28,362 bases of DNA, taken from positions 1 to 28,362 of the IMG/VR virus record IMGVR_UViG_3300042326_001267; one strand, 5' to 3'. The notes beneath the pieces were generated by a model, which was given only the letters and a program-made list of their open reading frames with translations, did no database searches and was not told where the DNA came from. The DNA comes from a virus. Of this stretch, positions 259-27,194 are shown in pieces. The position numbers were made by a program, and so were the translations under genes. Numbering within the stretch: position 1 is the stretch's first letter; every line of letters begins with the position of its first letter.

Positions 259-752
259 AAACACTTACATGGGCGGACTTCGCCAAACACGAACCATGCG
301 ACAACCCCGCCGAAAAGTACGGCGATTGGGAGGGCACTATTTTAGACCTTATGCAACACCCTGAGATTCCAGCTAAAGACAAAGTTTGGGCATTTACAAG
401 GGAAGGCATTGTGAACGATAAAATCCTTCGTTTATTTGCTGTTGGCTGTGCAAGAAAGGTGCAACACCTTATGAAAGACCAACGAAGTATCGATGCCATT
501 AACGTTGCCGAAAGGTACGCAAATGGCAACGCAACAGAAGATGAACTGGCTGCGGCACGGAAAGTGGCATGGGCTGCGGCAGGGAAAGCGGCACGGGCTG
601 CGGCACGGGCAGCGGCATGGGGAGCGGCATGGGGAGCGGCAGAGGCAGCGGCAGATGCATCGGCATGGGAGGCGGCACGGGCAGCGGTAAGGGATGCGGC
701 ATGGGAAGCCCAAGTTGAAATTGCTATTGAACTTTTAAACAAACCAAGATGA
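255..752 (+). CDS. Imm5-like alanine-rich protein
   Basis: This 165-residue protein has two parts. Residues 1 to about 96 are mixed and include a segment around 65-92 (ARKVQHLM, DQRS, AERYANG) that I associate with the Imm5-like 'putative immunity protein' family common in phages and prophages. Residues 99-154 are an alanine array in four-residue steps, mostly of the form x-A-A-(W/R/E/D). The array should form a long helix with W and R on one face. The family has been named from polymorphic-toxin immunity contexts, but its role in phages is not established and no toxin gene is seen beside it. Start and stop both lie in ATGA overlaps, so translation is probably coupled on both sides. The gene is flanked by 16-bp direct repeats, suggesting insertion as a unit. 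Confidence 0.65.
   Translation: MKTLTWADFAKHEPCDNPAEKYGDWEGTILDLMQHPEIPAKDKVWAFTREGIVNDKILRLFAVGCARKVQHLMKDQRSIDAINVAERYANGNATEDELAAARKVAWAAAGKAARAAARAAAWGAAWGAAEAAADASAWEAARAAVRDAAWEAQVEIAIELLNKPR
549..716 (+). repeat. 12-bp degenerate tandem repeat coding alanine array
   Basis: About fourteen degenerate 12-base units built on GCGGCAYGG/GCGGCAGGG words encode four-residue steps such as AAAR, KAAR, GAAW and EAAR (residues 99-154 of the host gene). The low-complexity, purine-rich sequence also produces long open frames in other frames and on the other strand; these are artefacts. Confidence 0.8.
737..752 (+). repeat. 16-bp direct repeat, right copy
   Basis: Identical to 243-258. It contains the ATGA overlap between the Imm5-like gene and the following small gene. 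Confidence 0.85.
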
Positions 753-1597: not shown

Positions 1598-2192
1598 AGC
1601 ACGCTGTTCTGCCATTGGTCAAATTATGGCCAATGGCAGGGGGAAGGATACGGCCGGGGCAACTTGCTACGGCTACCTTCAGGATTGGGTTGTCGAGCAA
1701 CTTTTCGGAGTACGCCGCCAACTTGACACAAAGCCGATGGCAAAGGGCCGGGCGGTTGAAGATGCCGCCATCGAGTTCGCTGGGGCCCACCTTGGCTGGT
1801 TCATGCCTGAAAAAAACGAGCGGTTCTTTGAAAATGATTGGCTAACTGGCACGCCCGACATCGTAGAGGGTACAAGCATAGTTGACATTAAAAGTAGCTG
1901 GGACGCTTTTACCTTCCCTTTGTGGGATTCTAAACCGCCGCTGGGGTATGTCTACCAGTTGCAAGGTTATATGGCCTTAACGGGCCTTAAAAACGCCCAA
2001 CTGGTTTACGTGCTTATGCCAACCCCTGAAGAAATATGCGGCGAGGTGCAAAGCTATGATCACGTGCCAGCAAAATACCGCATTAAGGCCTACGAAATAA
2101 AGCGGGACGATGTGCTAATCGAGGCCATTTACGACAGGGTACAAATGTGCCGCAATATTATTGAAGTTGAACTATTAACAAAACTGAAATGA
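1584..2192 (+). CDS. YqaJ-like / PD-(D/E)XK phage exonuclease
   Basis: 202 residues from the ATG at 1584. An upstream in-frame ATG at 1545 would overlap erf by 53 bases and adds a poor N-terminus, so the later start is preferred. Motifs of the PD-(D/E)XK fold appear in order: GRAVEDAAIEFA (first acidic residue), TGTPDI and VDIKSS (the D...(D/E)xK core), and a YQLQGYMALTG helix with the Q..(G)Y pair typical of YqaJ/lambda-exonuclease relatives. It would digest one strand of DNA ends to give ERF its substrate. The pairing ERF-exonuclease in overlapping genes is the usual layout of phage recombination modules. The stop overlaps the next start as ATGA. Confidence 0.85.
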   Translation: MKEFKARCSAIGQIMANGRGKDTAGATCYGYLQDWVVEQLFGVRRQLDTKPMAKGRAVEDAAIEFAGAHLGWFMPEKNERFFENDWLTGTPDIVEGTSIVDIKSSWDAFTFPLWDSKPPLGYVYQLQGYMALTGLKNAQLVYVLMPTPEEICGEVQSYDHVPAKYRIKAYEIKRDDVLIEAIYDRVQMCRNIIEVELLTKLK

Positions 2193-2668
2193 CACGACAT
2201 TTTAAACGCTATTTGAACCGCAAAGACGTTAATTTATTAGAAGTCAAGGCATACATTGACCGAATTTTATCTAAAAGAATTGTGGCTAATGTAAAATATC
2301 CCATCAAGCCCAAATACGAAGAAACCGTACTAAGGGAAATGGCCGCATATTGGGGAGTGCCGATCGAAACCGCACTTACAAAGCGAAGATTTACAGAACA
2401 AATAAATTGTAAACACGCTTTTCGGTTTGCTCTCAGGGCTGTTACTGGAATGAAAATGGAGAAAATTGGGGCTTTGCTTAACTGCGATCATGCCAGCGTT
2501 AGCCACAGCATAAAATTTGTAAACAATACAAAAATCGGGGACAAGGAGTATTATAGCAAATGTCTTCAACTTGCAGAGCATCTGCGTATGGTATTGATTG
2601 AGTTGGAATTAAACGAAAATCAGCCTACCTTGCACGAAATACCTTGCGACATTTTCTTTCACAATTAA
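2189..2668 (+). CDS. DnaA domain IV-like DNA-binding protein
   Basis: 159 residues. Residues about 44-112 follow the layout of the DnaA C-terminal DNA-binding domain: a YWGVP segment, a basic R/K stretch, an AFRFALRAVTGMKMEKIG helix pair, and LLNCDHASVSHSI, which matches the DnaA signature helix (consensus G-x-x-RDHSTVxHA). There is no AAA+ part, so it is not DnaA itself. Such stand-alone domains probably bind DnaA-box-like sites or act as regulators in phages. It is cytoplasmic, with the last 45 residues unassigned. It sits between the recombination genes and SSB, which fits a DNA metabolism role. A second protein of the same type lies at 26835-27194 on the other strand. Confidence 0.72.
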   Translation: MTRHFKRYLNRKDVNLLEVKAYIDRILSKRIVANVKYPIKPKYEETVLREMAAYWGVPIETALTKRRFTEQINCKHAFRFALRAVTGMKMEKIGALLNCDHASVSHSIKFVNNTKIGDKEYYSKCLQLAEHLRMVLIELELNENQPTLHEIPCDIFFHN

Positions 2669-3020: not shown

Positions 3021-3389
3021 ATGTTACAAATTCAATTGATTGGCCGTATTGGCAAAGACGCCGAGTTGGTCGGCAAAAACAAAGACATTGCAACCTTTTC
3101 GGTAGCGGTCGGCAAAGGCGAAGAAACCCAATGGTTTCGCTGTGCCCTGTTCGGCAAGAACAACCAGCCTGCTGGGGTTGCCAAGTTCTTGAGCAAAGGC
3201 ACTCAGGTGTACATTAGCGGCCGCCCTGTTCTTGACGTTTACAAAGACAAAGAGGGCAACGATAAAATTGGCACAGACATCAAGGTGCTGGTTAACCAAG
3301 TCGAACTGCTTGGCGGCACACGAACCGAATCAGGCGGTAACCATTTGCCACAAGTCGCAGAAATTGATGGCGATGCTTTGCCATTCTAA
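3021..3389 (+). CDS. ssb: Single-stranded DNA-binding protein
   Basis: 122 residues with an OB-fold of the bacterial SSB type: the start MLQIQLIGRIGKDAEL, the central ATFSVAV strand, the WFRCALFGK segment and the GTQVYISGRP strand are all typical. The C-terminus ends in DGDALPF, a match to the acidic tip (D-D-x-L/I-P-F) by which SSB recruits recombination and replication proteins. It is shorter than cellular SSB because the flexible linker is almost absent. It would coat single strands for the ERF/exonuclease pair and for replication. The leader contains a repeated AACCATTT unit just before the ATG, and a GTACCTTTAA box at 2986-2995 resembles the promoter element. A terminator follows at 3414. 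Confidence 0.95.
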   Translation: MLQIQLIGRIGKDAELVGKNKDIATFSVAVGKGEETQWFRCALFGKNNQPAGVAKFLSKGTQVYISGRPVLDVYKDKEGNDKIGTDIKVLVNQVELLGGTRTESGGNHLPQVAEIDGDALPF

Positions 3390-4586: not shown

Positions 4587-4602
4587 TGTTAGTTTTAATT
4601 TG

Positions 4603-4610
4603 TATTTTTG
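4603..4610 (+). promoter_or_regulatory. Promoter -7 box TATTTTTG
   Basis: TATTTTTG matches the Bacteroidota consensus TAnnTTTG exactly. A clear -33 TTTG at the right distance is not seen. Transcription would begin near 4615 and run into the folded element and the replication initiator gene. Confidence 0.55.
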
Positions 4611-4614
4611 TAAA

Positions 4615-4745
4615 GGCACTAACAAGCCGATGATAGGTAAAAACAAAATTTAACCGAGCCGTTTGTTCGGGGGTAGCGTGAGAAAGGAGGCCCACCTTGG
4701 CCAATTGTTAGCCTTACTTACCGCCCCCGCACAAATGGCTTTTTT
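4615..4745 (+). ncRNA. Structured RNA or attenuator before the replication gene
   Basis: The RNA strand can form one long branched hairpin. The outer helix 4657-4666/4731-4740 has ten pairs (one G-U). After one mismatch, 4668-4673 pairs with 4724-4729 (six pairs, five of them G-C runs). An inner helix 4678-4682/4713-4717 has five pairs, and GGCC 4689-4692 pairs with GGCC 4699-4702. Six T follow directly (4740-4745), as in an intrinsic terminator, and the next start codon is only eight bases further. It could be a small phage RNA with its own terminator or a leader that attenuates the initiator gene. It matches no RNA family I recognise, and no open frame of note lies in it. Confidence 0.6.
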
Positions 4746-4753
4746 ATTAAGAT

Positions 4754-5536
4754 ATGAAACAACTACCTTGGTTCAAATTTAGCCCAGCCGACTGGATGAT
4801 GGGCAGAATATCCCGCCAATCTTGCGAGGTTCAGGTGGCATTTTTGCGGCTATGCTGCATCTATTGGAATGCCGAATGCGAGATGACAGTTGAACACGCC
4901 GAGTTGGAATGCGATGGCTATTTCGACCGCCTTGTGGCCCTGAAAATGGTTGAGGTTATTGGCGATAAAATTGGCATTAAATTTCTTACCATTCAGTACA
5001 TTGAAGGTAGCGAAAAGCGGCAAAAAATGTCCAACGCTGGCAAGGCATCTGCCCAACAAAAGCTTAACGAACGTTCAACGAATGTTCAACAAACGTTCAA
5101 CGAATGTTCAATAGAGAAGAGTAAGAGTAGAGAAGAGAAGAGTAGAATAAGAGTAGATAAAGAGAGTAAGGGCACATACACACGTGAAAACTTTATTGAT
5201 GATTTACTGGGCGAATTCAAAACCGATGCCGATTTGCGAAGCGTAACGAAAACATGGCTTCAAAAGAAAAAGGTAATTACCGAAAAGTCGATGCAAATTT
5301 CAAAGGCCGAAATACAAGGGCATAACAAAAGCGAAATGTATGCAGCGATAATGGCCGCAGCCGACAAAGGTTGGGCACAGCTATACAGCCGAAAAGATAA
5401 GCAAGGCAAAGGCACATCAACAAGTTTACCTGCTGGTAAGCCTTGGTTAGACCCAGCAACCATAGCCGCAGCCAAGGCGAGTGCCGAGCGGCTTAAGAAA
5501 CTTGAAAACCGAAGCGAGGGCGTAACACAATTTTAA
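4754..5536 (+). CDS. Phage replication initiator / replisome organiser
   Basis: 260 residues. The N-terminal domain (1 to about 92: WFKFSPADWMMG, QVAFLRLCCIYWNAE, a winged-helix-like rest) resembles the N-terminal domain of phage replisome organisers of the Lin1244/Lin1753 type. A polar linker (about 93-145) is coded by iterons and a purine-rich tract. The C-terminal part (about 145-230: FIDDLLGEFKTDADLRSVTKTWLQKK) would contact the helicase loader. By analogy with lambda O, the protein would bind the repeats within its own gene and recruit the loader encoded at 6146. Its expression is probably controlled by the promoter and folded RNA upstream. No helicase or polymerase is encoded here, so host enzymes are presumably used. 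Confidence 0.78.
   Translation: MKQLPWFKFSPADWMMGRISRQSCEVQVAFLRLCCIYWNAECEMTVEHAELECDGYFDRLVALKMVEVIGDKIGIKFLTIQYIEGSEKRQKMSNAGKASAQQKLNERSTNVQQTFNECSIEKSKSREEKSRIRVDKESKGTYTRENFIDDLLGEFKTDADLRSVTKTWLQKKKVITEKSMQISKAEIQGHNKSEMYAAIMAAADKGWAQLYSRKDKQGKGTSTSLPAGKPWLDPATIAAAKASAERLKKLENRSEGVTQF
5066..5109 (+). repeat. Four tandem 11-bp iterons
   Basis: Four head-to-tail units: AACGAACGTTC (5066-5076), AACGAATGTTC (5077-5087), AACAAACGTTC (5088-5098), AACGAATGTTC (5099-5109). Units 1-2 and 3-4 form a 22-bp repeat with one mismatch. The first unit holds the palindrome GAACGTTC. The 11-base period does not fit codons, so the repetition is selected at the DNA level and not for protein. Likely binding sites of the initiator encoded by the same gene. 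Confidence 0.85.
5110..5172 (+). other. Probable origin unwinding tract
   Basis: A 63-base stretch next to the iterons contains no C on this strand; it is built of GAGAAGAG and GAGTA words. Iterons followed by a strand-asymmetric purine-rich tract inside the initiator gene is the layout of the lambda origin and several other phage origins. It encodes part of the charged linker of the initiator (EKSKSREEKSR). Confidence 0.7.
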
Positions 5537-5545
5537 GCAGCAAAA

Positions 5546-6130
5546 ATGGAACAGCATAAATTGAACCCAGCGTTAAAAACAGATAGCTTTTCTTTTCTTG
5601 AATGTTCTTGGGAAAGCGTAAAGCATTTGTTTCTTGCTTACCATTACCTTAAAACAATGCCAGCAGGAATAATGGCAGTTTATGGATTGTTCGATGAAAG
5701 GGAATTGGGCAAAGCGGTAGGAGGGGCTGTTTTTTGTAACGGCAGAATACAATACGATGGAAGGCTTTTAGAGTTTAGCAGAATGTGGATAAGCGACCAT
5801 TACGGCACAAATACAGAAAGTTGGTTTATGGCCAAATGCCTAAAAGCACTTAACAAGAAATTCCCAACTCATGAAGGAGTTGTAACATGGGCAGATTGCA
5901 ATATCGGGCATAACGGTACAATTTATTTGGCAGCAAATTTCGTATATGATGGGGAAAGCAGAACGGTTAAAAAGTTCTTAGGCAAAAACAAAAAGGTTAT
6001 TTACGAAAGAACATCAACTTCATCCGACATTTGCATTGGCAAAGAAATGCCCAAAAAAAGATTTATATACTATTTTGATTCTAAAATACGTGAACAAAAA
6101 AAGCAGCAACCTAAAACACAAAAACCTTAA
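5546..6130 (+). CDS. Mom-like DNA modification protein (GNAT fold)
   Basis: 194 residues. It shows the pattern I associate with phage Mom-family proteins: YHYLK at 32-36, a GGAVFCNG strand near 59-66, EFSRMWI at 76-82, an ESWF helix start at 91, and WADCNIGHNGTIY (115-127) followed by AANFVYDG. In phage Mu, Mom modifies adenine (described as methylcarbamoylation), protecting DNA from restriction. The same role is inferred here. The gene is visibly richer in A and T than its neighbours, which suggests separate acquisition. The basic C-terminal tail (KKRFIYY...REQKKQQPKTQKP) could help DNA binding. It lies between initiator and helicase loader. Confidence 0.7.
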   Translation: MEQHKLNPALKTDSFSFLECSWESVKHLFLAYHYLKTMPAGIMAVYGLFDERELGKAVGGAVFCNGRIQYDGRLLEFSRMWISDHYGTNTESWFMAKCLKALNKKFPTHEGVVTWADCNIGHNGTIYLAANFVYDGESRTVKKFLGKNKKVIYERTSTSSDICIGKEMPKKRFIYYFDSKIREQKKQQPKTQKP

Positions 6131-6145
6131 TTTTACTTTACCGCT

Positions 6146-6916
6146 ATGAAACTAACATTACACGAAACAACACTTGACCGCCGTGCAATTGAACTTGCAA
6201 ACGTGGTATTCAGCCCCGATAAAATGCGGCTAACGAAAGAACGTGCCGCCGCAGTTCGGCAGCTTTGCACCGCCTTTCAAAATGGCACACCGTTCTTCTT
6301 AACGGGCGATACAGGGACAGGTAAAACGATATACACCAAATTGTTTTTGGCCGCCCAGCCCGATAAGAAATTCGTTTACTACAATATGCGGCACTTGTTT
6401 CGGGAGTATGCGGCAATGAAAAACCCCGATGAATTCATCTTGGCGTTTATTCAAAAGACCCGGTACACGGCTTTAATTCTTGATGACGTGGGCAGCGACG
6501 AAGCGGTTGGTGCATACGGCAGGGCGAATACCATTCTTTACGATATTATCGAAAGCCGAATGGAAAGCAACCACCTGACAGGCATAATTTCAAACAACAC
6601 CTTGTCCCAAATTTTGGCAAGGTTCGGGACGGACGGCCAGCCCGATGCACGGTTAACTTCACGCCTTAAAAAATGGGAAACCATTATCATGCCCGGCGAT
6701 GACAACCGGGGCGTTTTCGATATATTGCCTTTTGCCCAATGGCCGCAAACCCAACTGCCAGCCGATGTCGAATTGCCAGCGATACCATGCCCTGAGCATC
6801 TTCGTGAAAGCATATACGAAAAGTTGGGCATCATTGCCAACAAGGTAGTTGATGCACCGCCCAGCAAAGCCGATGAACTTCGTAAAGCGTTTTGGGGCAA
6901 TTCGGTAAAGCCATAA
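6146..6916 (+). CDS. DnaC-like AAA+ helicase loader
   Basis: 256 residues with the AAA+ motifs of DnaC/IstB-type ATPases: Walker A GDTGTGKT at 54-61, Walker B ALILDDVG at 109-116, a sensor I serine-asparagine pair at 149-151 and an arginine pair in RLTSR (169-173) suited to an arginine finger. The protein is near the usual length for phage loaders. It would load the host replicative helicase at the origin marked by the iterons in the initiator gene two genes upstream. IstB proteins share this fold, but no transposase is nearby, so helicase loading is preferred. The C-terminal 50 residues are unassigned. Confidence 0.85.
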   Translation: MKLTLHETTLDRRAIELANVVFSPDKMRLTKERAAAVRQLCTAFQNGTPFFLTGDTGTGKTIYTKLFLAAQPDKKFVYYNMRHLFREYAAMKNPDEFILAFIQKTRYTALILDDVGSDEAVGAYGRANTILYDIIESRMESNHLTGIISNNTLSQILARFGTDGQPDARLTSRLKKWETIIMPGDDNRGVFDILPFAQWPQTQLPADVELPAIPCPEHLRESIYEKLGIIANKVVDAPPSKADELRKAFWGNSVKP

Positions 6917-7013
6917 CTTGACTGAACGACCTAAAAAGTAAAGTGATACCTTGACCAATAAACCATTCATTAACCCTACCTTGTAACTTTAATGACGCAA
7001 AAATGATGCAACT

Positions 7014-7244
7014 ATGAGCAAGCTATTTTTAAAATTCAACCTTCCCGAAGAAGAAGCCGAGGCTAACTTTGCCCTAAAAGGCGGGGAGTATTTCTTGATA
7101 CTGCATGACCTTTACCAAAAGCTGAGGGATATTACCAAGTACGGCAATAACCCTTTCATCGGCAGAACAGCAAGCGAGCAAGAAATGCTACTTGCCGAGC
7201 AGATACGGGAGTACCTTAACGAAAAAGATTTTAAGGATTTATGA
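7014..7244 (+). CDS. Conserved small phage protein
   Basis: 76 residues, acidic and mostly helical. It begins with a strand-like KLFLKFNLPEE and continues with a helix carrying YFLILHDLYQKLRDITKYGN, which I recall from uncharacterised proteins encoded after helicase loaders in other phages. The function is unknown. The 97-base gap upstream contains TACCTTGT (6977) and TAACTTTA (6984), each a near match to the TAnnTTTG box, so a transcript probably starts here. The stop overlaps the next start as ATGA. Confidence 0.7.
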   Translation: MSKLFLKFNLPEEEAEANFALKGGEYFLILHDLYQKLRDITKYGNNPFIGRTASEQEMLLAEQIREYLNEKDFKDL

Positions 7245-7498
7245 AAATGAATTCAAGTTGCCCTACGGGGGGACAAATTGTCCCTATGAATATCGATACC
7301 GTTGCCGAGTTTTGGGCTGGCTTCGATTTCGACACCGCCCAGCCGATTGCGTTCATTGATTCCCAAAAGATAAATTGCTTGCGTACCTTTGTGAATGCCC
7401 ACATTTTGTATTTAAAAGCAAACAAGGGCAAACCGCTTTACCTACCTTACTGGCTGCGGCTTGAAAAATTAACAAAGCATTATGCCGAAAAGCGTTGA
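7241..7498 (+). CDS. Hypothetical phage protein
   Basis: 85 residues, not assigned. The second half (INCLRTFVNAHILYLKANKGKPLYLPYWLRLEKL) has the feel of a helical segment seen in other Bacteroidota phage proteins. The N-terminal 25 residues may be unstructured. A second ATG at 7247 (two codons later) is possible as start. Start overlaps the previous stop (ATGA) and its end overlaps the VRR-NUC gene by 17 bases, so it belongs to a tightly coupled string. Confidence 0.65.
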   Translation: MKMNSSCPTGGQIVPMNIDTVAEFWAGFDFDTAQPIAFIDSQKINCLRTFVNAHILYLKANKGKPLYLPYWLRLEKLTKHYAEKR

Positions 7499-7826
7499 AC
7501 ATCAAATACAATTGGCTTGCGTAAAGTACTTCAGGGCTGCGTTTCCCGACCTTTATTGCAACCTTTGGCATACCAATGGCCGAGCGATTGACAAACGAAA
7601 CGGCGGCGTTCTAAAAGGCATGGGCGTTATTGCTGGCGTGCCCGACCTTTTGTTTTTTTACAAAGGCAAGCTACACGGCATCGAACTAAAGACCGCCAAG
7701 GGCACGCAAAGCGATGGGCAAAAAGAATGGCAAAAAATGGCATTGATGCACGGGGGCGAATACCACATTGTGAGAACCGTTGAACAATTCGTACTTTTGA
7801 TTCAGCAAACAATTCAAAATGGTTAA
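7482..7826 (+). CDS. VRR-NUC domain nuclease
   Basis: 114 residues covering a complete stand-alone VRR-NUC domain (PD-(D/E)XK fold): an N-terminal glutamate helix (SVEHQIQLACVKYFRA), WHTNGR, a glycine-rich turn with LKGMGVIAGVPDL (the catalytic D at 55), IELKT (E68, K70) and SDGQKEW (Q80). Such small nucleases in phages are thought to act on branched DNA, and often lie near terminase or replication genes, as here. The start overlaps the previous gene by 17 bases. The stop overlaps the TylF gene within a short direct repeat. Confidence 0.88.
   Translation: MPKSVEHQIQLACVKYFRAAFPDLYCNLWHTNGRAIDKRNGGVLKGMGVIAGVPDLLFFYKGKLHGIELKTAKGTQSDGQKEWQKMALMHGGEYHIVRTVEQFVLLIQQTIQNG
7816..7826 (+). repeat. 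11-bp direct repeat, left copy
   Basis: AAAATGGTTAA is identical to 8459-8469. It contains both the stop of VRR-NUC and the start of the TylF gene. The two copies bracket TylF precisely. Confidence 0.75.
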
Positions 7827-8469
7827 GAACACGTTTATTGAAATAGTATCGCCGTTCACAATGACCAGCGTTGAACGAATGGGTGCTTTGTACGATTCCC
7901 TTGAGTACATAAGGGCAAACAACATTCAGGGCGATTTTGTAGAATGTGGCGTTTGGAAAGGTGGCAACATTTTGGGAATCATGGAATACCTTGCATTTCA
8001 CAAAATGACCGACCGAAAGGTGTTTTTGTACGATACGTTTCAGGGCATGACACCGCCTGAAGATATTGACAAAGACCTAAACGGCAGAAAGGCAGAAAGC
8101 ATACTTGAAGACGTTATGTGCATTTCGCCAATTGATGAGGTTCGGGAAACGATAAGCCGTTCAAGTTTTCCATTGGTAAACGTAATTTTTGTTCAGGGCG
8201 ATGTTTGCGTTACCCTTAATGGTGCAAAGTACATACACGAAAACAACTTAGCACTACTTCGGCTTGATACGGATTGGTATGCGTCAACCAAAAAAGAAAT
8301 GGAGGTACTTTACCCTAAATTGAACTTTGGCGGAGTTTTGATTGTTGATGACTACGGGCATTGGAAAGGTTCGAAAACTGCGGTTGATGAATACTTTGAA
8401 GGGCAAGGCATATCGCCAAAAATTGAACAAATTGACTATACTGGAATCAAAATCATAAAAAATGGTTAA
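7819..8469 (+). CDS. TylF/MycF-family O-methyltransferase
   Basis: 216 residues, full family length. SAM-binding motif FVECGVWKGG at 40-49, YDTFQGM at 71-77, LRLDTDWY at 147-154 and VDDYGHWKG at 176-184 with the paired aspartates that hold the metal in MycF. Known members (TylF, MycF) methylate sugar hydroxyls in macrolide synthesis, and relatives occur in surface polysaccharide loci. The substrate here is unknown; a sugar on the host envelope, virion or modified DNA are options. It separates VRR-NUC from ParB/terminase genes with which it has no obvious functional link, and it is bracketed by AAAATGGTTAA repeats, so it looks like an inserted accessory gene. Confidence 0.88.
   Translation: MVKNTFIEIVSPFTMTSVERMGALYDSLEYIRANNIQGDFVECGVWKGGNILGIMEYLAFHKMTDRKVFLYDTFQGMTPPEDIDKDLNGRKAESILEDVMCISPIDEVRETISRSSFPLVNVIFVQGDVCVTLNGAKYIHENNLALLRLDTDWYASTKKEMEVLYPKLNFGGVLIVDDYGHWKGSKTAVDEYFEGQGISPKIEQIDYTGIKIIKNG
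8459..8469 (+). repeat. 11-bp direct repeat, right copy
   Basis: Identical to 7816-7826. It contains the stop of TylF and the start of the ParB-like gene. Confidence 0.75.
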
Positions 8470-8956
8470 ACTTGTAAAAATCGGTTCGGTTAAGGGAAAC
8501 AGCCGTAACCCAAGATTTATTCGGGATGAGAAATTCAAAAAGCTGGTGGCTTCGCTTGTGGAGTTTCCTGAAATGGCTACTCTTCGCCCTTTAGTGGTCG
8601 ATGAAAACATGACCGTACTTGGCGGCAATATGCGGCTAAAGGCGATGCAAGAACTGAAATGGAAGGAGGTTCCCATTGTAGTTGCCGAAAATTTGACCGA
8701 TGCACAGAAGGATGAATTTGTTATCAAAGACAATGTGGGGTTTGGCGATTGGAACTGGGAGCAGTTGGCAAACGAATGGGACGCAGAAGAACTGACAAGG
8801 TGGGGGCTTGATATACCGGGCTTTGATACCGAACTGCCAAACGATGAACCCGAAGAACAAGACGCAAACAGCCTGATAGTCGAGGCCGATATGATAACCT
8901 TGGAAGACCTTTTCGATGAACTGAAAAGCCGAGGGTTTAATGTTTCAATGAAATAA
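8462..8956 (+). CDS. ParB/Srx-fold nuclease-domain protein
   Basis: 164 residues. The N-terminal two thirds show the ParB/sulfiredoxin fold as used in phages: NPR near 16-18, a PLVVDENMTVLGGNMRLKAM segment (about 43-62), then a DEFVIKDN strand and the aromatic GFGDWNWEQL motif near 93-102. In phages this domain is often fused or next to DNA methyltransferases and placed just before terminase, as here; no methyltransferase of DNA is present in this gene. It may bind or nick DNA or control packaging. The last 40 residues are acidic. Start overlaps TylF by 8 bases. Confidence 0.82.
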   Translation: MVKLVKIGSVKGNSRNPRFIRDEKFKKLVASLVEFPEMATLRPLVVDENMTVLGGNMRLKAMQELKWKEVPIVVAENLTDAQKDEFVIKDNVGFGDWNWEQLANEWDAEELTRWGLDIPGFDTELPNDEPEEQDANSLIVEADMITLEDLFDELKSRGFNVSMK

Positions 8957-25726: not shown

Positions 25727-26838
25727 AAGCAGCCTAATTGTCGGCCCTTGCCATCGGTCGTAATTGTATGCCTTGGGTTACCAATTAAGCCAAGCAATTC
25801 GTTTACATCGAATGAATCCACATCGTGAACTATCAAAACGCCATTTTCGGCTACCTTTTTTTGGTAGTATTGCACCAATTCTTGAATAACGCTGGGCCCG
25901 TGATAGCTGTCGTGAAACACCACATCATATTTTTCATCGTTTTGCAGTTCTTTTTCGCCTGATGTTATGCGAAAATCAATTAAATATGGACTGCAAAACG
26001 CAATGTTTGCCTTTAAATGTTCATCGCTGATGTCGATTGTCTTTACCGACATGCCAGCCATTGCCATGGCCTTTGCCCCATGTGCCTTAAAAGTACCTAC
26101 TTCAAGGGCCTTGCCGCCTTTGTATTGCTTGGCCACGTTGTAAATTTCGGTTATGTGCATTTTGTCCGTTATCCACGTATGAGCAAAGTCCCAGTTTTCA
26201 ATTTGTGATTCGGGGTTCCCCCATTCAAAGTCATTGTTACCTTCGTAAATTGAGTAATTTGCTGATGAGTGAAAAGCCAACACTTCTTCATTGGGGATAT
26301 TTGTATTAACGTCCATCACGTTCAACCGCTTGTCGGCCAGCGTTACCAAGTTTTTGAAGACCTGATTTGAAACGCATTGGTCGCCCCATATGTTTTCGTA
26401 CCTGAAATAGTTGTTGTAGCAGAAATCAAATATCGGCTTGTGCTTGCGGTTGGCCACAAACCAACCAGCATTGAAATAGGTTGAGGGCTTTAATCGATAT
26501 TGCTGTTCAAGGCCACGGGTGTGATCATTGTCCCGGTCAAGGCAAAAGTAAACGTCTTTGAAATCGGGCAAATGATCTGCCAAATCGAAATCCCGAACGG
26601 GCCGCCAATCGCAGTCATGATACATTACCAAATCAAGGTCGGGCCAAATATCCCAAATCTTGTACTTCAATGTCCACACCATTTCTTTAAACTGATGCAA
26701 GTTTAATGCATGGTGCAAATGTTCATCCGTTATAATTCGGGTTTCAAGTCCAAGATGCTTACGGACAAGTTCTGCCGATTTTTCAGCGTGCTTCAGGTAA
26801 TCGCCAATGCCGATGGTTACCGCTACGGGTTTTTTCAT
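25711..26838 (-). CDS. Glycosyltransferase-methyltransferase fusion
   Basis: 375 residues. Residues 1 to about 230 look like a GT-A fold glycosyltransferase: VAVTIGIGDYLKHAEK start, MYHDCDWRP at 72-80 with a D-x-D metal motif, YFNAGWFVANR at 121-131 and WGDQCVSN at 151-158. Residues about 235-375 are a class I SAM methyltransferase: ALEVGTFKAHG (244-254), KTIDIS (266-271), VVFHDSYHG (286-294) and NGVLIVHDVDSFD (312-324). One protein may therefore transfer and then methylate a sugar, or decorate a polymer end. Its reverse orientation in a forward-strand region suggests a late-acquired accessory gene; it overlaps the DnaA-like gene by ATGA. Confidence 0.78.
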   Translation of the reverse strand: MKKPVAVTIGIGDYLKHAEKSAELVRKHLGLETRIITDEHLHHALNLHQFKEMVWTLKYKIWDIWPDLDLVMYHDCDWRPVRDFDLADHLPDFKDVYFCLDRDNDHTRGLEQQYRLKPSTYFNAGWFVANRKHKPIFDFCYNNYFRYENIWGDQCVSNQVFKNLVTLADKRLNVMDVNTNIPNEEVLAFHSSANYSIYEGNNDFEWGNPESQIENWDFAHTWITDKMHITEIYNVAKQYKGGKALEVGTFKAHGAKAMAMAGMSVKTIDISDEHLKANIAFCSPYLIDFRITSGEKELQNDEKYDVVFHDSYHGPSVIQELVQYYQKKVAENGVLIVHDVDSFDVNELLGLIGNPRHTITTDGKGRQLGCFYSGL

Positions 26839-27194
26839 TTTGTTGTAGATTGAATTATGTTGTAAATTTTAAACCATTTACCGGGCACGTTTTTTTTGAA
26901 AAACAAAACCCGTTGAACGTGCTGCCCAACCGTTACCCGATTGATGCCGATAAGTTCTGCCGCTTCGCCGCTTGACAACCCTTTCATGGCCACGAAATAA
27001 TAAGACGCAATTCGCTTAATGTCGGAATACTGCCGCCGTGTTGCACCCCGAAATGCGGCGTAATCAACCCCGTAGTATGCACAAAGCGACCAAAGAAAGT
27101 CATCGGCTGCCAGCGAAATGCGGCGATTCAGTTCGCTATTTACCGCAAATTTAAGGTCGAAAAGTTCGGCCAATGAAAGTTGTGCCACGTTCAT
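26835..27194 (-). CDS. DnaA domain IV-like protein
   Basis: 119 residues. Residues about 31-98 follow the DnaA C-terminal layout: DDFLWSLCAYYGVDYAAFRG, a basic RRQYSDIKRIASYYFVAM helix, LSSGEAAELIG and the recognition-type NRVTVGQHVQRV. The match resembles the protein at 2189 in order and spacing (YGV, R-rich helix, IG turn, V-x-H/V-x-x-V), though the RDHSTV core is replaced by NRVTVG. It probably binds DNA and could control its own divergent promoter region or the downstream fusion gene. Coupled to that gene by ATGA. Its promoter box (minus strand 27207-27200) lies five bases before the ATG. Confidence 0.65.
   Translation of the reverse strand: MNVAQLSLAELFDLKFAVNSELNRRISLAADDFLWSLCAYYGVDYAAFRGATRRQYSDIKRIASYYFVAMKGLSSGEAAELIGINRVTVGQHVQRVLFFKKNVPGKWFKIYNIIQSTTK

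What the first reader, a model, noticed from the sequence alone, without database searches (positions are those of the whole stretch)
5066..5172. Origin of replication inside the initiator gene
Four perfectly tandem 11-bp iterons (5066-5109) are followed at once by 63 bases without a C on this strand. Both lie within the linker-coding part of the replication initiator. The 11-base period is out of step with codons, so the repetition is kept for DNA reasons. The layout mirrors lambda O/ori but with different iteron sequence, length and alternation (units 1/3 and 2/4 differ).
Basis: partly seen in the sequence, partly recalled or inferred. Interest (0 to 1): 0.72.

Follow-up and report, generated by a model that had tools for sequence, protein, structure and literature searches.

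The report
Phage replication origin inside initiator gene
A phage gene for a replication-starting protein carries, inside its own coding sequence, the DNA repeats that this protein most likely binds to start copying the genome, and the same repeat recurs in the same kind of gene in many unrelated phages, which would let origins be found from sequence alone.

Summary
5066-5109 is four head-to-tail 11-bp units, plus a degenerate fifth upstream (5055-5065), and 5110-5172 is the longest C-free run in the window.

The repeats are kept as DNA. Across 17 relatives the AAC-n4-GTT core stays fixed in all three codon frames while the peptide changes. In 91 the array lies in an ORF with a DUF1376-like N-terminal domain; Pfam on 111 of the ORFs found 85 DUF1376 and 12 Lin1244_N. 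A half-site-swapped control gave 58 stretches and none in such ORFs. Related phages have exchanged the start-codon-to-tract segment as one cassette (flanks 91-99% identical), replacing N-domain, iterons and tract together, as in lambda O/ori.

Best reading: an in-gene origin. The wHTH-like N-domain binds the dyad iterons, the weak C-free tract opens, and the C-domain recruits the helicase with the nearby DnaC-like loader.

Binding and replication are untested. GC skew was uninformative. The units 1/3-2/4 alternation is only lineage-specific.

In-gene origins are known. The DUF1376/Lin1244 domain paired with a conserved AACn4GTT iteron was not found in the literature searched.

The parts
4754..5536 (+). 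replication initiator gene (260 aa): DUF1376-like wHTH N-domain, linker holding the origin, separate C-domain
4754..5080 (+). coding part of the N-terminal DUF1376-like domain (residues 1-109), predicted helices, two-strand wing and long helix
   Evidence: AlphaFold2 mean pLDDT 90.1; structural matches to DUF1376 and Lin1244 proteins of phages, query TM up to 0.95
5055..5065 (+). degenerate upstream iteron (unit 0), AACaaaaGcTt
   Evidence: alignment of 17 relatives; full AACn4GTT in some of them
5066..5076 (+). iteron 1, AACGAACGTTC
5077..5087 (+). iteron 2, AACGAATGTTC
5088..5098 (+). iteron 3, AACAAACGTTC
5099..5109 (+). iteron 4, AACGAATGTTC
5110..5172 (+). C-free tract with short-period AGAGTA/AGAGAA repeats; proposed duplex-unwinding element
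   Evidence: longest C-free run of the window; codon choice avoids C; 60 bp from 5110 are the least stable of the gene and at the 99.8th percentile of the window
4751..5156 (+). exchangeable cassette (start codon to end of tract) replaced by an unrelated N-domain, iteron and tract set in L028 while the flanks stay 91-99% identical
5157..5533 (+). coding part of the C-terminal domain, shared by both N-domain types; proposed helicase/loader contact
   Evidence: function inferred
6146..6916 (+). DnaC-like helicase loader (AAA ATPase)
   Evidence: PHROG 50 E=1.4e-14, PHROG 3277; AAA/IstB
3021..3389 (+). single-stranded DNA-binding protein
   Evidence: PF00436 E=4e-14

Best explanation
This is the phage's replication origin, embedded in the linker-coding part of its own initiator gene. 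The N-terminal wHTH-like (DUF1376-like) domain binds the AAC-n4-GTT units, which are dyad-symmetric and lie about one helical turn apart, so several copies stack on one face of the DNA. The resulting complex strains and opens the adjacent easily melted, C-free repeat tract (5110-5172). The C-terminal domain then brings in the replicative helicase with the DnaC-like loader encoded at 6146-6916, with SSB (3021-3389) holding the strands apart. Shown here: the repeats are constrained as DNA; they are coupled to this domain family across unrelated phages; domain, iterons and tract have been exchanged as one cassette; and the tract is weakly paired and C-depleted beyond what its peptide requires. 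Inferred: protein binding, strand opening, helicase recruitment, and that replication starts here.
For: (1) DNA-level constraint: in 17 aligned relatives variability follows position within the 11-bp unit, not codon position; third codon positions in the core have mean entropy 0.04, against 0.61 outside the core and 0.47 in the N-domain. More distant relatives (65-69% and 52% N-domain identity, different C-domains) keep AACn4GTT at 11 bp with different spacers and peptides. Pfam on 111 ORFs: 85 DUF1376, 12 Lin1244_N. (3) Same iteron in Sinorhizobium phage phiLM21 (27% identity, DnaB helicase gene adjacent), Moraxella Mcat18 and Methylophilaceae P19250A. (4) Cassette exchange: L028 is 99.3% identical to the window from 5157 to 8533 and 91-95% identical over long stretches upstream to 4750, but carries a different N-domain, 12-bp iterons and tract between; N types A and B occur with C subtypes c1 and c2 in all combinations; each genome type checked carries only its own iteron array. 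(5) Tract: C-depletion against peptide; least stable 60 bp of the gene; a short-period repeat tract follows the array generally (p<0.05 within its own ORF in 75% of 84 arrays). (6) Neighbours: DnaC-like loader, SSB, ERF annealase, exonuclease.
Against: No binding, melting or replication data. No complete genome; skew is monotonic with gene direction and cannot place an origin. Only about a third of 21 unselected DUF1376-type genes of named phages carry AACn4GTT units; others carry other repeats or none that I recognised. In 11 of 85 arrays the repeats lie within about the first 80 codons, and there the following tract is not repeat-like in the cases printed. A Walker-A ORF lies within 1.6 kb downstream in only 9 of 69 family members, so a DnaC-like loader next door is not the rule. 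The window also encodes a protein with a DnaA domain-IV-like HTH (2189-2668), which could serve another origin.
Confidence: 0.85

Rival explanations
1. The iterons are an operator: the initiator-like protein binds them only to repress its own expression, and replication starts elsewhere.
For: Iteron-binding initiators often autoregulate (general knowledge). The array is inside the protein's own gene, and nothing here shows replication initiation directly.
Against: The array is 300 bp into the gene, far from the promoter expected upstream. A C-free, weakly paired repeat tract follows and is exchanged together with the domain and iterons. The neighbours are replication genes.
Confidence: 0.07
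2. The repeats are only a low-complexity, charged or polar linker peptide; the DNA repetition is a by-product of linker evolution by slippage.
For: Linkers of such proteins are low in complexity, and array length varies between relatives.
Against: An 11-bp period shifts the codon frame at each unit. The core is conserved in all frames, including third positions, while residues change. The same DNA core occurs with unrelated peptides. The swapped-half control pattern is never found in these genes. Some arrays sit inside the folded domain's coding region.
Confidence: 0.03
3. The array is a partition or segregation (centromere-like) site, or another recognition site of a different phage protein.
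For: Tandem short repeats are typical of centromere-like sites, and a ParB-like protein is encoded at 8462-8956.
Against: The array travels with the DUF1376/Lin1244 N-domain. The start of the ParB-like gene lies in the stretch that is 99% identical between phages with different iteron types.
Confidence: 0.03

Closest known systems
Bacteriophage lambda O protein / ori-lambda (and Stx-phage O/ori)
   Same: Origin in the middle of the initiator gene; several iterons followed on one side by an easily melted tract; iterons with inverted-repeat symmetry (PMC5043065, PMC7466680); the part upstream of the tract is exchangeable with its iterons while the C-part is shared (shown here; in lambdoid phages from general knowledge).
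   Different: 11-bp units with AACn4GTT core instead of the longer lambda iterons (18-19 bp, from general knowledge); no detectable similarity of the window protein to phage O families in Pfam or PHROGs; different N-domain family; tract C-free rather than simply AT-rich; loader DnaC-like rather than P.
Iteron plasmid origins (P1, RK2, F)
   Same: Helically phased tandem initiator sites next to a melting region (PMC5043065).
   Different: [quoted passage not shown] here each unit has a dyad and lies inside the gene.
Rac prophage ydaU-ydaV of E. coli K-12
   Same: DUF1376 protein next to a DnaC-like ATPase; linker carries AACaggtGTT and AACagatGTT. Rac is reported to have an active origin, oriJ (PMC3945230).
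   Different: 12-bp spacing and only two good units; the position of oriJ relative to ydaU was not checked.
Bacillus subtilis basal unwinding system (DnaA boxes + DnaA-trios / DRE)
   Same: Double-stranded initiator sites followed at once by a strand-asymmetric short-motif repeat in the unwinding region (PMC10201434).
   Different: No DnaA-box cluster or AAA+ initiator; motif and period differ; single-strand binding here is a guess.

Membership tests
lambda-type in-gene origin (architecture) | iterons within the initiator's coding sequence, between DNA-binding N-part and C-part | tested here: met
   N-domain residues 1-109, iterons from residue 105, C-domain from about residue 135
lambda-type in-gene origin (architecture) | iterons under DNA-level constraint | tested here: met
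lambda-type in-gene origin (architecture) | units with dyad symmetry | tested here: met
   AACn4GTT is self-complementary; consensus of 291 units, selected for the core, also shows roughly symmetric G/A and C preferences next to it
lambda-type in-gene origin (architecture) | adjacent easily melted tract on one side | tested here: met
lambda-type in-gene origin (architecture) | N-domain and iterons exchange together, C-part shared | tested here: met
lambda-type in-gene origin (architecture) | initiator binds the iterons and replication starts there | not testable with these tools
   needs gel shift, footprint or marker-frequency data
phage lambda O protein family | sequence homology to O | tested here: not met
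   no Pfam family and only PHROG 29280 (unknown function) for the window protein
DUF1376 (PF07120) | Pfam match of the window protein | tested here: not met
   0 families at E<=0.1
DUF1376 (PF07120) | same fold and linkage by intermediates | tested here: met
   BFVD matches named DUF1376, query TM 0.82 for phi19:1 R9ZW52; local HMM linking it with phiLM21 gp32 and YdaU. Called DUF1376-like for this reason
DUF1376 (PF07120) | solved structure confirming wHTH | tested here: inconclusive
   no significant PDB fold or sequence match
Iteron plasmid origin | direct-repeat iterons outside the coding sequence | tested here: not met
   array is inside the ORF and units have dyads

The most novel reading that the evidence does not exclude
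DUF1376 and Lin1244_N, annotated as domains of unknown function or 'primosomal protein', are the DNA-binding domains of a widespread class of phage initiators whose origin sits in their own gene. The origin has two parts: dyad iterons with fixed geometry (AACn4GTT as the main class, TGCn4GCA as a second specificity) read as double-stranded DNA, and an adjacent short-period tract lacking one base, read as a single strand, comparable to DnaA boxes plus DnaA-trios. The origins of many phages could then be located from sequence alone.
Probability: 0.45. Interest if true: 0.78.

Novelty: new variant of a known kind. Interest (0 to 1): 0.62.

Why it matters
In-gene origins are known mainly from lambdoid and some Gram-positive phages. 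Here a domain of unknown function gains a testable DNA target, with the same 11-bp iteron in phages of Bacteroidota-like and Proteobacteria hosts that share little protein sequence. That gives a sequence rule for locating phage origins and their compatibility types. It also gives a natural experiment (near-identical phages that differ only in the N-domain-iteron-tract cassette) for asking how an initiator and its origin change specificity together.

Tried and rejected
GC skew as an origin locator: monotonic along the coding direction in all seven contigs, no information. First structure job on the full protein with 17 close relatives: poor (pLDDT 38.7), not used; repeated on the N-domain with 64 diverse sequences. 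PDB fold and sequence searches: nothing significant. The search for related loci in genome contigs: no relative; the pattern scan there gave many hits from a few MAG bins, 2 of 118 in DUF1376-like ORFs, so the pattern alone is not diagnostic in cellular genomes. C-domain profile scan: no further N-domain types. DnaA boxes: a single TTATnCACA at 5784 on the minus strand, inside the mom gene, not a cluster. Rfam: nothing. TGCn4GCA x3 at 21 bp: 10 of 120 in DUF1376-like ORFs, enriched but not dominated by them. Walker-A gene downstream as a general rule: 9 of 69, not the rule. Literature: no paper in the held library joins DUF1376 or Lin1244 with iterons or an origin.

Full report
WHAT IS THERE. 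The window is a 28,362-b IMG/VR record, without terminal repeats, probably a fragment. Gene 4754-5536 encodes 260 aa. It has no Pfam match and one PHROG of unknown function (29280, E=4e-13). Around it are an ERF annealase (950-1597), an exonuclease (1545-2192), a protein with a DnaA domain-IV-like HTH (2189-2668), SSB (3021-3389), a Mom-like protein (5546-6130) and a DnaC-like loader (6146-6916): a replication and recombination module. A degenerate fifth unit lies at 5055-5065.

MORE THAN CHANCE, AND FOR DNA REASONS. Holding the protein fixed and shuffling synonymous codons, 2 of 5000 shuffles reach the 11-bp periodicity and none the 22-bp one. In 17 distinct relatives aligned without gaps over the array, AAC at unit positions 1-3 and GTT at 8-10 are nearly invariant whatever the codon frame. 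Third codon positions in the core have mean entropy 0.04, against 0.61 outside the core and 0.47 across the N-domain. First codon positions outside the core vary freely (0.62). The encoded peptide meanwhile changes (ERSTNVQQTFNEC, TSSTNVKHTFNEC, KVSPNVEQTLNEC and others). Relatives with 65-69% identical N-domains and a different C-domain keep AACn4GTT-type units at 11 bp with other spacers (CTAT, CTGT) and another peptide (THVEPMLNLPSTEVEPVFN). The tract is C-free in all the sequences tested, with P <= 6e-4 each given its amino acids.

A BLIND REVERSE TEST. The self-complementary pattern AACn4GTTnAACn4GTTnAACn4GTT (18 fixed bases) was scanned over IMG/VR contigs. In 91 the match lies inside an ORF whose N-part matches a DUF1376-like HMM built here. 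Pfam-A on 111 of the ORFs gives 85 DUF1376 and 12 Lin1244_N. Two controls ran to completion: the same letters with half-sites swapped gave 58 stretches, 0 in such ORFs; the 12-bp period version gave 51, 6 in such ORFs. The HMM seed contains some window relatives that carry the iteron, but also DUF1376-type proteins without it; the independent Pfam count does not depend on it. 291 units from 85 non-redundant arrays give (C/G)AAC(G/A)(G/A)nCGTT(C/G)A, with 3-6 units per array; the AAC and GTT letters of this consensus are fixed by the way the units were selected, the others are not. The first unit starts in any codon frame (21/40/24). After the array comes, in three quarters of cases, a short-period tract such as TAACCAATAACCA, AACCAAG or GAGAAGAG, more repetitive than 95% of other windows of the same ORF. 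The same iteron is present in Sinorhizobium phage phiLM21 gp32 (27% identity to the window protein; DnaB helicase gene next door), Moraxella Mcat18 and Methylophilaceae P19250A. Of 21 DUF1376-type genes of named phages and YdaU looked at without regard to iterons, about a third carry AACn4GTT units. Several others carry a different dyad, such as ATGCGAACGCAT (reading of the printed sequences).

CASSETTE EXCHANGE. A relative found through the C-domain only (L028) is 99.3% identical to the window from 5157 to 8533 and 91-95% identical over long stretches upstream to 4750. Between the start codon and the end of the tract it has an unrelated N-domain (HTH_36/DnaD-like, PHROG 2514, tested on its near twin L027), 12-bp iterons with core GGGCAYAWCA and another A-rich, C-poor tract. 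N types A and B are found with both C-domain subtypes. The type-B contigs checked have no tandem A iterons and the type-A contigs no tandem B iterons. N-domain, iterons and tract thus behave as one unit of specificity.

THE PROTEIN. AlphaFold2 on the N-domain with 64 diverse sequences gives pLDDT 90.1: helices, a two-strand wing and a long helix that ends where the iterons begin. Foldseek finds phage DUF1376 and Lin1244 proteins and replisome organizers (query TM up to 0.95) but no significant solved structure.

MECHANISM. Shown: DNA-level constraint, coupling of iteron to domain family, cassette exchange, weak and C-depleted tract. The 60 bp from 5110 are the least stable of the gene and at the 99.8th percentile of the window. 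Inferred: the wHTH-like N-domain binds the dyad units; spacing of one turn puts copies on one face; the tract opens; the C-domain and loader bring the helicase. This follows the lambda O paradigm (PMC5043065, PMC7466680). An autoregulatory operator, a pure linker effect and a partition site are less likely for the reasons given under the rivals.

LIMITS. No experiment. The window is a fragment. Skew is uninformative. The C-domain's role is inferred from position only. The literature library holds only open-licence papers, so 'not found' is not 'not known'.

Noticed in passing
window 5546-6130: A Mom-like DNA-modification gene lies between initiator and loader; in L027 the alignment passes from the initiator end (window 5543) to window 6101 without it, so it looks like an insertable extra gene.
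   Followed up: partly
window 2189-2668 and 26835-27194 (-): The first protein carries a DnaA domain-IV-like HTH without an AAA+ domain (PF08299 E=5e-7); the second, on the other strand near the right end, looks similar by eye but has only weak hits. A DnaA-like small gene also follows the initiator in phiLM21.
   Followed up: no
window 548-709: 12-bp tandem repeats (13.5 copies, in frame) in gene 255-752 encode an alanine-rich repeat; unlike the iterons this period is a multiple of three.
   Followed up: no
window 4587-4753: 167-bp intergenic leader before the initiator with a TAttTTTG Bacteroidota-like -7 element (by eye) and a G/C-rich stretch; no Rfam match.
   Followed up: partly
L138, L145, L156, L160, L167, L181, L214: AACn4GTT arrays within roughly codons 40-90 of DUF1376-type ORFs, inside the folded domain's coding region rather than in the linker, without a repeat-like tract after them in the cases printed.
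   Followed up: partly
L472, L473, L464, L097, L098; L483, L501, L509, L525: DUF1376-type genes with a different dyad repeat (TGCn4GCA, e.g. ATGCGAACGCAT, often 21 bp apart), commonly followed by a similar short-period tract: a likely second iteron specificity of the same domain.
   Followed up: partly
L120, L203: Array AACn4GTT x3 inside an ORF that starts with a different protein (GKHTDANGNE..., 404-415 aa), with initiator-like linker sequence in the middle; possibly an independent use of the repeat.
   Followed up: no
L339:10539-10620 (NC_000913.3 about 1421538-1421619): E. coli K-12 ydaU linker holds two AACn4GTT units 12 bp apart; a candidate site for the Rac origin oriJ.
   Followed up: partly
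L027 vs L028: Type-B iteron array differs by one 12-bp unit between close relatives, so copy number changes readily.
   Followed up: no
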